From NCBI RefSeq assembly GCF_019704555.1, contig NZ_AP024745.1, positions 3,542,501-3,606,500 of the forward strand: a stretch of 64,000 bases of DNA, in the 5' to 3' direction. This document shows positions 39,388 through 46,654 of the stretch, piece after piece. The notes beneath the pieces are model-generated. The model saw only the letters and a program-made list of their open reading frames with translations. It was not told the origin of the DNA and did not search any database. A program made the position numbers and the translations under genes. Positions within the stretch are counted from its first letter, which is position 1. The number at the start of each line of letters is the position of its first letter. This stretch comes from Actinoplanes sp. L3-i22. GTDB lineage: Bacteria > Actinomycetota > Actinomycetes > Mycobacteriales > Micromonosporaceae.

Positions 39388-40575
39388 CTAATGGCCGCCG
39401 GGGGTGGCCTGGGCCGGAGCGGGAGCCCCCGCCGGCCGCGCCGAACCCAGTGCGGCCAGCGCCGAGGCCAGGTCACTGACCTGACTGGTGAGCTGCGCCA
39501 CCCGCTGATGCGCGGAGTCCGCGTCGGCTCGCGCGGCGGCCAGGCGCCGCTCCAGGTCGACGCGTTCCTCGACGGCCCGATCAAGATCTTTGCGGGTCCG
39601 GTCGAAGTCCCCGGCCGTGCGCCGCAACTCGTCCCGATCGCCGGTCACCGCGGCGAGTTCCTGCCGCACCCCGGCCACCTCGGCCGCGGCCCGGTCGGCC
39701 CGGGCGGTCGCCTCGGTGGCCGCCTTCTCGGCGCGCGCGGTGGCCTCGGCGGTGGCCCGCTCGGCGGCCTTCGCCCGCAGCTCGGCCTGCTCGGCGGCGG
39801 CCCGCAGGGCGTCCGCGTCGGCGCGGGCGGCGGTCAGCGACTCCTCGGCGCGGGCGGCGGTCTGCTCCGCCGTACGCCGGAAGTCGTTGTGATCCCGCAA
39901 GGCCGCCGCAAGATCGCGTTCCGCGGCATCGCGCTGGGCCTTGGTCTCCTGGACCTGGTGCCGCGCGGCGGACAGCTCGTCGCCGGCCGCGTCGCGTTCC
40001 GCCTCGGCGCGTTCGCGCAGCGCGGCCGCCGCCGTCGCGGCCTTCACCGCCTCGTCGCGCGCCGTGAACGCCTCCTGCTCGCGCTTGCCGGCCTCCTCGG
40101 CCGCCCGCGTCGCCTCGGTGGCGCGCTGCCGGGACTCGTCGCGTTCCGCGGTCGCGGCCACCGCGATCTGCTGCGCCGCGGCGGTCGCGGTCGCCGCCTG
40201 CTCGGCGTCCCGGCGCGCGTCGTCCCGCTCGGCGTGCGCGGCGGCCACCGCCGACGACGTCTCCGCCCGCACCTCGGCGACCTGCCGCTCGACCCCGGCC
40301 GGCGACATCTCCGAGTGCAGCGCCTCGGTCAGCGTGCCGACCATCTGGTCGAGGCGGTCCACCACCTCCCAGGTGCGGGCCACCGAACCGGCCAGCCCGG
40401 GGGAGGAGCGGTGCCGCATCCGCACGTTGCGGTTGGCGCGCTGGCACTCGCCGTCGTTGTCCCGGCAGTACCGGAACGGCCGGCCGGCGGAGGAACGCTG
40501 CGGCACGGGGCGCCCGCAGTGGGCGCAGGGTCGGGTTTCCATCGCCTCGGCGGCGGAGTGGTCCTGCATCGTCAT
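39388..40575 (-). CDS. Zinc-finger and long coiled-coil protein
   Basis: I do not recognise this 395-aa protein as a named family. The N-terminus has a small metal-binding motif of the type C-x2-C (CAHCGRP) followed by YCRDNDGECQRANRN, as in short zinc ribbons or DNA-binding fingers. From about residue 60 to 375 it is one continuous Ala/Glu/Arg-rich coiled coil (AERDDARRDAEQAATATAAA and similar). The layout recalls KfrA-like or chromosome-organising coiled-coil proteins with an N-terminal DNA-binding part, but this is only analogy. ATG 40575 is chosen; ATG 40569 is also possible. Confidence 0.7.
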   Translation of the reverse strand: MTMQDHSAAEAMETRPCAHCGRPVPQRSSAGRPFRYCRDNDGECQRANRNVRMRHRSSPGLAGSVARTWEVVDRLDQMVGTLTEALHSEMSPAGVERQVAEVRAETSSAVAAAHAERDDARRDAEQAATATAAAQQIAVAATAERDESRQRATEATRAAEEAGKREQEAFTARDEAVKAATAAAALRERAEAERDAAGDELSAARHQVQETKAQRDAAERDLAAALRDHNDFRRTAEQTAARAEESLTAARADADALRAAAEQAELRAKAAERATAEATARAEKAATEATARADRAAAEVAGVRQELAAVTGDRDELRRTAGDFDRTRKDLDRAVEERVDLERRLAAARADADSAHQRVAQLTSQVSDLASALAALGSARPAGAPAPAQATPGGH

Positions 40576-41145
40576 AGCAGGACCCACCCTAGGCCGAACA
40601 ACGATCTTCCCGATGTCACCACACCGATGCCTTCCCCGAGCCGCGCATTGTTTCCCCTACTGTGCCCGCTCCACTCGCCCTGCCCCGGGCCCTCTCGGTC
40701 GATCAAGATCAAATTCTTCATTGCCTATGTCCGCCGGGGTACAGATCGTCGCTCCCGCGGGGACCCTTCCGGGCCTCGCAGGGCGCGGGGCGCCCAAGAA
40801 CGCGAGGCCCTCCAGGGCGATGTCCGTGGGTGGTTGCGGTTCAAAAGAACCAACGCCAGCCGGCTGCCGCGCAGGGCCCAGCCGCGGCCCCGCTCCCGGC
40901 GGGTGGGATATCCGCGAGCGTCGTGGTGTCCCTGCTCGTCATGCTCGGAGCGAAGTTCGCGATCAAGCTGCGCCGCGGCCTTACCTCGCGGATTTGCGGC
41001 GTGGCCCGAAGAGTGTGGGCGCTGGGCAGCGGGGATCGCGGCGTGGCTGGGAGTGCGGTCCGGGGGAGTGGGGATCGCGGCGTGGCCGGGAGTGCGGTCC
41101 GGGGGAGTGGGGATCGCGGCGTGGCCGGGAGTGCGGTGCGGGGGA
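40576..41145. other. Intergenic region with repeats before the next gene
   Basis: The 570 bases upstream of the gene at 41146 include an AT-richer patch at about 40700-40730 (GATCAAGATCAAATTCTTCA) that could hold a promoter, and three 39-bp repeats from 41031. A frame through 40662-41165 would translate the repeats as GSGDRGVAGSAVR and has one hydrophobic stretch; I cannot confirm it as a gene. Confidence 0.45.
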
Positions 41146-43513: not shown

Positions 43514-46051
43514 ATGTCCATACCGTTCGATCTCTGGGGCCAGCGTGGCTGGGCCTCCGCGGAAGTCGCCGGCGAGTCGCACTACCAGGCCGCGATCCGG
43601 TCGCTGTTCGGCGCGCGTCTCCCAGCCGGTGGCAGCGAGATCACGGTCGCCGCGCAGCTGCTGCCCGAGCCGCTCAACAAGCACGACCGCAACGCGGTGG
43701 CGGTGTTCGTCGGCCCGGCCCAGGTCGGCTACCTGCCACGGGAGACCGCGATGAGCTACGCGCCGACGCTGATCGGCCTGGTCGCGCGCGGGTGGACGCC
43801 ACAGGTCGGCGCGCGGGTCTGGGGCTCGCAGTGGGGTCCCGGCGAGTTCAGCGTCTCGGTCCGCCTGGACCTGGCCGAGCCGCACATGATCATGCCGGCG
43901 AACCAGCCGCCGCCGGAGCCGCACCGGATGCTGCCGTCCGGCGGAGCCATCCAGGTCACCGGCGAGCAGCACCATCTCGACGCGCTCGCCACCTGGCTGC
44001 GCGCCGAGGGGGAGTGCTGGGTGCACGCCACCCTGCACGAGATCACCGAGCAGTCCGCCCGCAGCGCGCGGACGGTGGTCGAGGTGCGGATCGACGGCGC
44101 CCGGGTCGGGCAGCTCACCCCGCGGATGAGCGGTGAGGTGCTGGCCGCCGTCCGGCACCTCGCGGAGCGCGGCCTGGGCGCCTGCACGCGGGCGATCGTC
44201 AAGGGCAACAGGATCAAAACCGAGGTCATTGTGTACGCGGCCCGCGCGCACGAACTTCCGGACAGCTGGCTCGACCTCCCCTCCGAAACCGCGCCCCCGC
44301 CCGCCGCCTCCCCGGCCCCGCCGGCTCAGCTCGCGCCGGTCCCGATGCCCCGCCCGATCCCGATCGTGCCCGTCGCCGCGGAACCCTCAGCAGCCGAGAC
44401 CGCGGTCCTGTCCGCCCCGGCGAGCCGGCCGGCGGCACCGGCACAGCCGCCGGCCCCGGTGATCCTGCCGGCGGTGCCGCCCGCGCCGATCGGCCAGATG
44501 CCGCCGCCCGAGCCGGCCGCCCAGACCGCCGTGCTCCCCGCCCCGGCCGGGCACACCACGGTGCCGATCACGCCGCCCGCCCCGCGGGGACCGCGTGCTC
44601 CCGACGTACCGGAAAGGCAATCGGACCCGGCGCAAGCCGCGGGACCACCGCAAGCACCGCATCGCCCGCGTTTCAACCCGCCGCCGAACTGGCCCGCCCC
44701 GCCGCCCGGATGGTCGCCGCCGCCGGGCTGGGCGCCGGATCCGGGCTGGGGACCGCCCCCGGCCGGTTGGCAGGTGTGGATCGAGGAGCCGCCGGTCGAG
44801 GAGCCGCGGCACGATCCGGAGATCCCGCTGTTCGGGGCGCGCGGGAAGGCCCGGGAGCTGGCGGCCGAGGTGGAGAAGCTGCGCGCCGAGCGGGAGGAGA
44901 TGGCCCGGCTCGGGCTGTTCGACCTCAAGGACCTGATGGAGCAGCGGCAACGCCTGCAGCGCGACCTCACCGACCTGCGGCACCACCTCGACGGACTGCG
45001 CAAACAGGTGGTCGTCACCGAGGAGGAGGCGCTGCTGCAGGAGGCCGGGATCTACCGCTACCGGCATCCGCTCAGTGACGCGGTCGCCTACCAGGAGGCC
45101 CTCGCCCACCTGCAGGATCAGATCAAGGAGATGGCGAAACCGGACGGCGGCGCGGTGCTGGCCGCGGCCGGCTGGACGGTGAACGGCTCCGAGGCGCAGG
45201 GGCGGACGATGCTGCGCGACTACGCGAAGCTGATGCTGCGCGCCTACAACGCCGAGGCGGACAACCTGGTGCGGACGCTGAAGCCGTACAAACTGGATGC
45301 CGCGATCGAACGGCTCGGCAAGGTCGCCGGGACCATCGCGCGGCTCGGCAAGACGATGGACATCCGGATCTCCGAGCCGTACCACCGGCTGCGCGTGCAG
45401 GAGCTCGGGCTCACCGCCGACCACCAGGAGCGGCTCGCCGAGGAGAAGGCGCGCGAGCGGGAGGAGAAGGCCCGGCTGCGCGAGGAGCGGCAGCTGCAGC
45501 AGGAGATCGAGCGGGAGCGGGCCCGGCTGGACAAGGAGCGGCAGCACTACGCGAACGCGCTCGCCGCGCTGCGGGCCGGCGGGGACGTCGAGGGCGCCGC
45601 GCAGCTGCGGGACCGGCTCGCCGAGATCGACGCCGCGATCCAGGACGTCGACTACCGGGCCGCGAACGTCCGGGCCGGCTACGTCTACGTCATCTCGAAC
45701 CTCGGCGCGTTCGGCGAGAACATGGTCAAGGTCGGGATGACCCGCCGGCTCGACCCGCTGGACCGGGTCCGCGAGCTCGGCGACGCGTCCGTCCCGTTCG
45801 TCTTCGACGTGCACGCGCTGTTCTTCGCCGAGGACGCGGTCGGCATCGAGGCGCAGATGCACGCCCGCCTCGCCGACCGCCGGGTCAACCTGGTCAACCA
45901 GCGGCGCGAGTTCTTCTACGCGACGCCCGCCGAGGCGAAACGTCACCTGATGGAACTGACCGGAAACCTGCTTCAGTACGAGGAGACGCCCGCCGCCCTG
46001 GAATACCGCCAGAGCCTCAACCAACCCCGCCGGAACGTCGTACCCGGGTGA
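43514..46051 (+). CDS. HIRAN - DUF4041 - GIY-YIG nuclease, SNIPE-like
   Basis: This is an 845-aa multidomain protein. Residues about 15-80 form a HIRAN domain (VAGESHYQAAIRSLFG, then LNKHDRNAVAVFV and VGYLPRETA), a fold that binds DNA ends. A second similar region is at about 140-225 (VVEVRIDGARVGQLTPRMS). A Pro/Ala-rich linker follows (about 255-430), then the DUF4041 coiled-coil region (about 435-680; LFGARGKARELAAEVEKLRA) and a T5orf172/Mug113-type GIY-YIG nuclease at about 720-830 (GYVYVISNL, MVKVGMTRRLDPLDRVRELG, GIEAQMHARL). DUF4041 plus this nuclease is the core of the SNIPE anti-phage protein. SNIPE has an N-terminal membrane anchor; here HIRAN domains replace it. A 12-bp gap links the next gene. 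Confidence 0.88.
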   Translation: MSIPFDLWGQRGWASAEVAGESHYQAAIRSLFGARLPAGGSEITVAAQLLPEPLNKHDRNAVAVFVGPAQVGYLPRETAMSYAPTLIGLVARGWTPQVGARVWGSQWGPGEFSVSVRLDLAEPHMIMPANQPPPEPHRMLPSGGAIQVTGEQHHLDALATWLRAEGECWVHATLHEITEQSARSARTVVEVRIDGARVGQLTPRMSGEVLAAVRHLAERGLGACTRAIVKGNRIKTEVIVYAARAHELPDSWLDLPSETAPPPAASPAPPAQLAPVPMPRPIPIVPVAAEPSAAETAVLSAPASRPAAPAQPPAPVILPAVPPAPIGQMPPPEPAAQTAVLPAPAGHTTVPITPPAPRGPRAPDVPERQSDPAQAAGPPQAPHRPRFNPPPNWPAPPPGWSPPPGWAPDPGWGPPPAGWQVWIEEPPVEEPRHDPEIPLFGARGKARELAAEVEKLRAEREEMARLGLFDLKDLMEQRQRLQRDLTDLRHHLDGLRKQVVVTEEEALLQEAGIYRYRHPLSDAVAYQEALAHLQDQIKEMAKPDGGAVLAAAGWTVNGSEAQGRTMLRDYAKLMLRAYNAEADNLVRTLKPYKLDAAIERLGKVAGTIARLGKTMDIRISEPYHRLRVQELGLTADHQERLAEEKAREREEKARLREERQLQQEIERERARLDKERQHYANALAALRAGGDVEGAAQLRDRLAEIDAAIQDVDYRAANVRAGYVYVISNLGAFGENMVKVGMTRRLDPLDRVRELGDASVPFVFDVHALFFAEDAVGIEAQMHARLADRRVNLVNQRREFFYATPAEAKRHLMELTGNLLQYEETPAALEYRQSLNQPRRNVVPG

Positions 46052-46063
46052 TAGACCTACGGG

Positions 46064-46654
46064 GTGGACGATCTGGAGCTGTTCACCGAGGAGGTGGCGG
46101 CACTCAACGGTGACCAGCCGGTGTTCCCCGCCCGCGAGGTGGTGGACCGGCCCGGCGACCCGGAGCGCTGGTTCCCGGGCTGGCCCGGGCCGGTGCTGCT
46201 GCTCTCGGTGGAGAATCAGGGCGTCTGCGCGTGGGGTGTCCCGCTCGACGATCCGGCCCCGCCGGTGCTGGTCGGCGGGCCGGCCGGCGCGACCCGGGTG
46301 TTCTCGCCGGACGTGGCCTCGTTCGTCGAGTTCCGGCGCTGGGCGGCGAGCTGCGAATGGGAGTTCGCGGCGCAGGCCGACGAACTGGACGAGGTGACCC
46401 TCAGCCACCTGCGCCGGCGGTACCGGGAGCGGCCCGGCCCGCGGGGCTGGCCGGGCCGGGCGACGTTCCGGTTCGAGGGGGCGGACGTGCGGATCATGCT
46501 GTGGGACGCGCCCGGCCAGTGCGACTGGTTCGTCGCCGGCGCCGGCGAGGCCGAGCTGCTGAACCTGCTCCCGTTCGCCGACCTGCGCACGTCGCTGTAT
46601 GCCTACGACGCGTCCGGGGCCGCGGTGCTCGCCCGGGTCAGGGGGCGGGGCTGA
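46064..46654 (+). CDS. Possible SMI1/KNR4 (SUKH)-like protein
   Basis: The 196-aa protein has LLLSVENQGVCAWGVPLDDP, then PPVLVGG, and a late RTSLYAYDASGAAVL. The ENQ-x-V-x-W-G pattern followed by a DPPV strand recalls SUKH/SMI1-KNR4 proteins, a superfamily used as immunity or scaffold proteins. The match is by eye and not certain. GTG 46064 is only 12 bp after the HIRAN-nuclease gene, so the two probably share a transcript. A control or partner role for the nuclease is inference. It overlaps the convergent MFS gene by 52 bp. Confidence 0.5.
   Translation: MDDLELFTEEVAALNGDQPVFPAREVVDRPGDPERWFPGWPGPVLLLSVENQGVCAWGVPLDDPAPPVLVGGPAGATRVFSPDVASFVEFRRWAASCEWEFAAQADELDEVTLSHLRRRYRERPGPRGWPGRATFRFEGADVRIMLWDAPGQCDWFVAGAGEAELLNLLPFADLRTSLYAYDASGAAVLARVRGRG

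What the first reader, a model, noticed from the sequence alone, without database searches (positions are those of the whole stretch)
43514..46654. HIRAN-fused SNIPE-like nuclease with a small partner gene
DUF4041 plus Mug113-type GIY-YIG is the core of SNIPE, a membrane nuclease that blocks phage DNA entry. Here the anchor is replaced by one clear and one probable HIRAN domain and a long Pro/Ala linker, suggesting recognition of DNA ends in the cytoplasm rather than membrane location. A possibly SUKH-like gene starts 12 bp downstream and a two-pass membrane protein gene is divergent 103 bp away, which might restore a membrane link.
Basis: partly seen in the sequence, partly recalled or inferred. 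Interest (0 to 1): 0.75.

Follow-up and report, generated by a model that had tools for sequence, protein, structure and literature searches.

The report
Tandem-HIRAN-fused SNIPE-type phage-defence nuclease
A soil actinomycete makes a predicted phage-DNA-cutting enzyme of the SNIPE family whose front end carries two DNA-end-type binding domains and a tryptophan-rich patch in place of the usual membrane anchor, a new variant of a recently described defence protein.

Summary
Window 43514-46051 (+) encodes an 845-aa protein: tandem HIRAN, Pro/Ala linker, coiled coil, DUF4041, GIY-YIG; PADLOC scores it PD-Lambda-1 (= SNIPE), E 7e-107. (2) Tandem HIRAN + W-box is also a stand-alone family in Actinoplanes, adjacent to but separate from SNIPE in A. 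lutulentus. (3) Eleven distinct fused proteins fall in one moderately supported clade; the seven tested are under purifying selection. (4) The 'partner' gene and the divergent membrane gene are not conserved with it: A. ianthinogenes has the intact fusion at the same locus without the partner, and the membrane gene was found in no related locus searched. Most likely it is a TM-less anti-phage nuclease with an added DNA-structure-sensing module; DNA binding, membrane contact and defence are inferred, not shown. New variant of a known kind.

The parts
43514..46051 (+). HIRAN-HIRAN-linker-W-box-coiled coil-DUF4041-GIY-YIG protein, 845 aa
43514..43891 (+). HIRAN 1 (residues 1-126), with the N-x-H-D motif (N55, H57, D58)
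43892..44269 (+). HIRAN 2 (residues 127-252), HIRAN-like, without the N-x-H-D motif
   Evidence: hhalign; fold
44270..44680 (+). Pro/Ala-rich linker, predicted flexible
   Evidence: composition of residues 253-400, which includes the first part of the W-box; flexibility inferred
44681..44788 (+). W-box: PPNWPAPPPGWSPPPGWAPDPGWGPPPAGWQVWIEE, SNIPE type
44834..45226 (+). helical / coiled-coil region at the start of the PD-Lambda-1 match
   Evidence: PADLOC matches begin at residues 456 and 473, GTG numbering; helical nature judged from sequence
45227..45394 (+). DUF4041 (Pfam PF13250)
45677..45943 (+). GIY-YIG nuclease domain (T5orf172/MUG113) with GYVYVI, KVGMT and GIEAQMH; candidate catalytic Glu E779 at 45848-45850
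   Evidence: role of the Glu by analogy with SNIPE E414, not aligned to it here

Best explanation
A membrane-anchor-less SNIPE-family nuclease that has gained, probably once, an N-terminal tandem-HIRAN module. Most likely it is an anti-phage DNase: DUF4041 and the GIY-YIG domain bind and cut incoming DNA as in SNIPE, and HIRAN 1 recruits or licenses the nuclease on exposed DNA structure (ssDNA or a 3' end, as on freshly injected linear phage DNA) through the flexible linker, while the W-box stands where SNIPE has its TM helix and serves to locate or restrain the enzyme. Shown: architecture, family, one moderately supported clade of fusions, purifying selection, SNIPE-type W-box, non-conservation of the neighbours. 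Inferred: DNA binding, nuclease activity, phage defence, role of the W-box and of HIRAN 2.
For: PADLOC PD-Lambda-1 and Pfam; two HIRAN folds; GIY-YIG motifs kept in 8 of 8 fused proteins printed, the window's own included; dN/dS below 1 in both halves in all 21 pairs of 7 fused genes (N-module 0.12-0.33, core 0.07-0.21); fused cores fall in one group (support 86/87), with one split copy (A. couchii) inside it; a HIRANx2-W-box gene lies next to, but separate from, a W-box-SNIPE gene in A. lutulentus; SNIPE-type Gly in the W-box in 10 of 10 fused and 0 of 29 HIRAN-only proteins. SNIPE without its TM is toxic in E. coli and its DUF4041 promotes nucleoid localisation (PMC13190303, passages), so a TM-less version needs some other restraint.
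Against: No phage or DNA-binding data. No defence genes found beside it: of 10 window genes scanned one matched PADLOC at 1e-5 (Csa3, over a helix-turn-helix region; read here as a generic regulator), and the two direct neighbours matched nothing. HIRAN 2 lacks the conserved motif; HIRAN 1 has His where HLTF has Tyr; in the viral relatives the Asp of the motif is a Ser or otherwise changed (by eye). Yeast Rad5 HIRAN binds ssDNA without 3'-end preference (PMC7804152, passages), so end recognition does not follow from the fold. Genomes with an unfused SNIPE are not enriched for a HIRANx2 protein (6 of 42, against 48 of the 293 genomes without a fusion). The fusion clade has only moderate support.
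Confidence: 0.5

Rival explanations
1. HIRANx2 is a protein-binding or localisation adapter: it recognises a phage injection protein or a host membrane or replication protein, in line with the adapter role proposed for SNIPE N-termini, and does not read DNA.
For: SNIPE N-terminal regions are very variable and proposed to be adapters (PMC13190303 section 9). Rad5 HIRAN binds PCNA as well as DNA (passages). HIRANx2 relatives in viral contigs carry TM-like segments in 6 of 7 loci and mostly lack the Asp of the motif (by eye). HIRAN 2 lacks the motif.
Against: In the 23-row alignment of stand-alone and fused actinobacterial members D58 is invariant and N55 at least 90% conserved, as expected if the ligand site is kept.
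Confidence: 0.3
2. A chromosomal DNA-repair nuclease: HIRAN brings a GIY-YIG nuclease to stalled forks or broken ends, with no role in defence.
For: HIRAN in HLTF and Rad5 acts in fork remodelling (search listing; passages). In the window's close relatives the gene sits at one conserved locus with ordinary neighbours.
Against: Patchy: DUF4041 in 13 genomes of the genus (67 genomes of the genus are held), fused in 7. At the same locus the core is reduced to a remnant or replaced in relatives, as expected of a dispensable defence gene. The core is full SNIPE type.
Confidence: 0.15
3. A chance gene fusion without new function: two W-box genes joined and the HIRAN part rides along.
For: In A. lutulentus the two genes are adjacent and each carries a W-box, so deletion between them would give the fusion. 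One relative at the locus keeps the HIRAN part but has lost the core.
Against: 11 distinct fused proteins in one group, and HIRANx2 dN/dS 0.12-0.33 across 7 of them.
Confidence: 0.05

Closest known systems
SNIPE / PD-lambda-1 (E. coli; PMC13190303, PMC9519451)
   Same: Coiled coil, DUF4041, C-terminal GIY-YIG nuclease domain; best PADLOC match over residues 473-839.
   Different: No TM helix; N-terminus is HIRANx2 + Pro/Ala linker + W-box. In the passages and section read, TM-less homologues are given DivIVA-like, type III ATPase-like, PH or DUF4428 N-termini, and 'hiran' does not occur in the main text; its supplementary tables could not be read.
W-box SNIPEs of the same bacterial family (DUF4041 proteins, many of about 500 aa)
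   Same: Same kind of core and a W-box ahead of it; the closest ones are the sister group in the tree.
   Different: No HIRAN.
Stand-alone HIRANx2-W-box proteins of Actinoplanes (e.g. P0051 in the same genome)
   Same: N-module 50% identical over 97% of residues 1-250 in P0051; C-terminal W-box.
   Different: No nuclease; W-box of another type.
HLTF HIRAN domain (PDB 4s0n, 4xzf, 5bnh)
   Different: HLTF has a HIRAN joined to SWI/SNF and RING domains (abstract start); Tyr to His in the motif; HIRAN 2 lacks the motif.

Membership tests
SNIPE / PD-lambda-1 | DUF4041 domain | tested here: met
   63.8 bits against cut-off 27
SNIPE / PD-lambda-1 | C-terminal GIY-YIG (MUG113/T5orf172) domain with catalytic Glu | tested here: met
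   51.2 and 45.7 bits; Glu of GIEA conserved in 8 of 8 fused proteins printed. Its equivalence to E414 was not aligned directly
SNIPE / PD-lambda-1 | Match to the PADLOC PD-Lambda-1 models | tested here: met
   356 bits, E 7.2e-107
SNIPE / PD-lambda-1 | N-terminal TM helix (typical, not defining: 34% of homologues lack a predicted one) | tested here: not met
   best 19-residue Kyte-Doolittle mean 1.37, inside the nuclease domain
SNIPE / PD-lambda-1 | Cleaves phage DNA during injection; binds tape measure protein | not testable with these tools
   needs bench work
HIRAN (domain 1) | Pfam HIRAN profile and HIRAN fold | tested here: met
HIRAN (domain 2) | Pfam HIRAN profile match (a matter of sensitivity, not defining) | tested here: not met
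   no Pfam match for this half at E 1
HIRAN (domain 2) | HIRAN fold / homology to domain 1 | tested here: met
HIRAN | Binds ssDNA / 3' DNA ends | not testable with these tools
   inference from HLTF and Rad5
SUKH (46064-46654 product) | Pfam SUKH profile | tested here: inconclusive
   no match for the window protein; 1 of 45 family members matches SUKH-1 at 1.9e-6; no PDB match to the profile

The most novel reading that the evidence does not exclude
Tandem HIRAN is a portable sensor of incoming DNA that actinobacteria and their prophages tether near the membrane and pair with unrelated nucleases: in cis with SNIPE (this finding), as a gene directly upstream of a DUF4011-SF1 helicase-MTES_1575 nuclease (own genome and 16 of 16 named loci of that type), and, with TM helices, in prophages beside the integrase, where it could exclude superinfecting phages. 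The W-box would be a docking or membrane-interface element shared by these parts.
Probability: 0.2. Interest if true: 0.78.

Novelty: new variant of a known kind. Interest (0 to 1): 0.52.

Why it matters
SNIPE is reported to be kept from cutting host DNA by its membrane anchor, and its TM-less form is toxic in E. coli (PMC13190303, passages). A natural group of TM-less, W-box SNIPEs, and a subgroup that adds a DNA-structure-binding type of module in cis, makes it testable how such a nuclease is restrained and aimed without a TM. It could also give a function to a prokaryotic HIRAN domain, a group that one paper calls uncharacterized (PMC11090510, passage).

Tried and rejected
Rejected: SUKH-like partner as a component. 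It is not between the intact fusion and the MFS gene in L094, and tblastn at E 0.01 finds it in none of the 11 HIRANx2/SNIPE loci (L032, L033, L094-L100, L106, L190) nor, at 1e-5, in the 56. One search finds homologues in 10 of 101 genomes including the own one; the nine others either have no DUF4041 match or have it on another contig (G044). In G029, which has no DUF4041 match, a SNIPE lacking part of DUF4041 (L182) lies about 64 kb away on the same contig. Divergent two-pass membrane gene as an anchor: no tblastn match in the same loci. Defence island in the window (12 genes scanned besides the fusion). Plasmid copies of the fusion: 0 of 185 matching plasmid records cover 80% of the query. 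Wider spread of the fusion: of 396 genomes of the phylum 14 have DUF4041 and 62 have HIRAN, and by eye only the window's own frame holds both; G407, G409, G446 and G645 have both in different places. Pfam HIRAN misses divergent copies, so this is a lower bound. HIRANx2/SNIPE co-dependence by co-occurrence: no enrichment. Solved relative of the nuclease core: none convincing. Foldseek for HIRAN 2 alone: nothing at E 0.001; the claim rests.

Literature, all in the held open-licence library: 'HIRAN domain' + 'T5orf172' 0 papers; 'DUF4041' 3 papers, none with HIRAN in the main text; 'HIRAN' + 'GIY-YIG' 18 papers by word start, of which two were searched inside (one held only in part) without a HIRAN domain found; 'SNIPE' + 'Actinoplanes' 0; 'DUF2510' 0. 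Of papers I saw: PMC13190303 outline, passages and section 9; PMC9519451, PMC12904381, PMC4666394, PMC7804152, PMC11090510, PMC7641849 passages; PMC3482391 and PMC7824862 a word search without hits; the rest search listings only. A defence scan of the neighbours of the other fused loci was prepared but not run.

Known weakness: one search read genome-search loci on the + strand only, so its minus-strand rows are wrong; repeat this with orientation. Gene calls come from a crude codon-bias caller of my own. dN/dS is by Nei-Gojobori, with dS often near or above 1.

Full report
Identity. The window is part of a 12.0-Mb single-contig genome whose close relatives are Actinoplanes. The gene at 43514-46051 gives 845 residues from ATG 43514. 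Pfam finds HIRAN, DUF4041, MUG113 and T5orf172, all above their cut-offs, and PADLOC gives PD-Lambda-1, the earlier name of SNIPE, with 356 bits over residues 473-839. No stretch looks like a TM helix.

The W-box. Before the coiled coil lies a 36-residue segment with six Trp and many Pro. I read 38 of the 50 DUF4041 matches found in 300 genomes of the bacterial family. Of these 7 are fused to HIRANx2 and 31 are not; 30 of the 31 have a W-box or close variant ahead of the core, and the exception (A. couchii, L106) has its W-box in an upstream, differently framed part of the same locus. So W-box SNIPEs without HIRAN are the rule among those read. In the genus the W-box profile has 64 matches in 45 of 67 genomes; 56 of the 64 lie within 4 kb of a HIRANx2 or DUF4041 match. 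I read the other 8: one is a SNIPE lacking part of DUF4041 (L182), one a 63-aa frame with a HIRAN-type tail (L187), and six are others: SHOCT/PH-like, PASTA-like with TM, or DUF2510-like with TM (these domain names by eye). In 200 genomes of the order 30 have a match. I fetched 20 stretches around listed matches; 18 of them gave 19 frames by pattern: 4 SNIPEs, one HIRANx2 protein with the W-box in front (L200), 10 with TM-like segments, and 4 unassigned short frames (SNIPE and HIRANx2 by eye). No Pfam model at E 1 covers the W-box in the window protein.

Origin of the fusion. HIRANx2 also exists without nuclease: of 56 named loci only 4 hold a SNIPE core, 2 of them fused, one adjacent (L039) and one split (L044). 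In A. lutulentus (L039) a HIRANx2-W-box gene is followed, after a short gap, by a separate W-box-SNIPE gene. In a maximum-likelihood tree of cores (48 rows, 42 different) the fused rows (14 rows, 11 distinct proteins) form one group with support 86/87, with the A. couchii core inside, and a sister group (88/89) holds W-box SNIPEs including the A. lutulentus one. The W-box has Gly after the fourth Trp in 10 of 10 fused proteins and in 13 of 22 unfused SNIPEs, against 0 of 29 HIRAN-only proteins. The simplest reading is one fusion with the junction upstream of the SNIPE W-box; the event itself is inferred. All 21 pairs among 7 fused genes have dN/dS 0.12-0.33 (HIRANx2) and 0.07-0.21 (core).

The locus. 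Relatives share the position (MFS and DUF5937 downstream, APH upstream in L033 and L094): A. ianthinogenes (L094, named through P0006, whose contig has the same length) has the intact fusion; L190 has HIRANx2-linker-W-box with only a coiled-coil remnant; A. cyaneus and A. liguriensis (L032, L033) carry another domain instead of the core, a weak, below-cut-off antibiotic-monooxygenase match in L033. The gene at 46064-46654 is in none of these. A metagenome protein 76% identical to it (P0064) is on a contig of the same length (6970) as a truncated relative of the fusion (P0002), so it may occur there (inference). The core is thus gained, lost and replaced at one place, as dispensable defence genes often are (established pattern; inference here).

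Wider HIRANx2 contexts. The paralogue in the same genome (P0051, 706 aa) lies directly upstream of a gene related to a DUF4011-SF1 helicase-MTES_1575 nuclease (named from L060: Pfam; PADLOC PDC-S37, then Hhe; own genome by tblastn). A relative follows the paralogue in 16 of 16 named loci of that type. These loci are broadly syntenic, so this is one vertical association. In viral contigs 7 distant HIRANx2 loci were found; 6 of 7 have TM-like segments, the 7th being cut by the contig end, and 4 of 5 downstream genes scanned are integrases or recombinases. Fifteen loci of the Kribbella type have no TM-like segment and lie beside one gene cluster, a threonine dehydratase in the one scanned.

Mechanism. 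In E. coli, SNIPE without its TM is toxic through its nuclease and DUF4041 promotes nucleoid localisation (PMC13190303, passages; section 9 read). A TM-less member must be restrained otherwise. I think it most likely that the W-box locates or holds the enzyme and that HIRAN 1 brings it to exposed DNA structure; Rad5 shows that a HIRAN fold alone does not imply 3'-end preference and can bind protein (PMC7804152, passages). Co-occurrence gives no support for unfused SNIPEs depending on HIRANx2 proteins (6 of 42 against 48 of 293). This part is inference, at about even odds.

Novelty. SNIPE N-termini are known to be diverse adapters, so this is a new variant of a known kind. HIRAN does not occur in the main text of the three DUF4041 papers held; supplements were not readable. 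The more surprising possibility is a shared HIRANx2/W-box sensor used by several nucleases and prophages; it is unproven.

Noticed in passing
L100 (own genome, C1:8578700-8598600) and L049-L053, L056-L065, L087: HIRANx2-long linker-W-box gene directly upstream of a DUF4011-SF1 helicase-MTES_1575 nuclease gene (PADLOC PDC-S37 / Hhe in L060); a relative follows in 16 of 16 named loci of this type.
   Followed up: partly
L191-L197 (viral contigs): Tandem-HIRAN proteins with TM-like segments in 6 of 7 loci, next to an integrase or recombinase in 4 of 5 scanned.
   Followed up: partly
L032, L033: At the window's locus the nuclease core is replaced by another domain (weak antibiotic-biosynthesis-monooxygenase match in L033) after the same W-box.
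   Followed up: partly
L190 (G137), P0002, L044/L106: Apparently decayed or split fusions: HIRANx2 and linker kept, nuclease lost or in another frame.
   Followed up: partly
L200 (G718:C49): HIRANx2 protein with the W-box at its N-terminus instead of the C-terminus.
   Followed up: no
L198, L202, L204, L207, L208, L212, L214-L216: W-box in proteins with one to four TM-like segments.
   Followed up: no
L182 (G029:C40): W-box SNIPE lacking part of DUF4041 but keeping the GIY-YIG motifs.
   Followed up: no
window 46064-46654: Product belongs to a family (141 proteins at E 0.001) with strongly conserved ENQGVCAWGVP-like and QCDW motifs; no Pfam match for the window protein, and one of 45 members scanned matches SUKH-1.
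   Followed up: partly
window 39388-40587 (-): 399-aa protein with a Cys-rich N-terminus and a long Ala/Glu-rich helical region, also present at this locus in L033 and L094.
   Followed up: no
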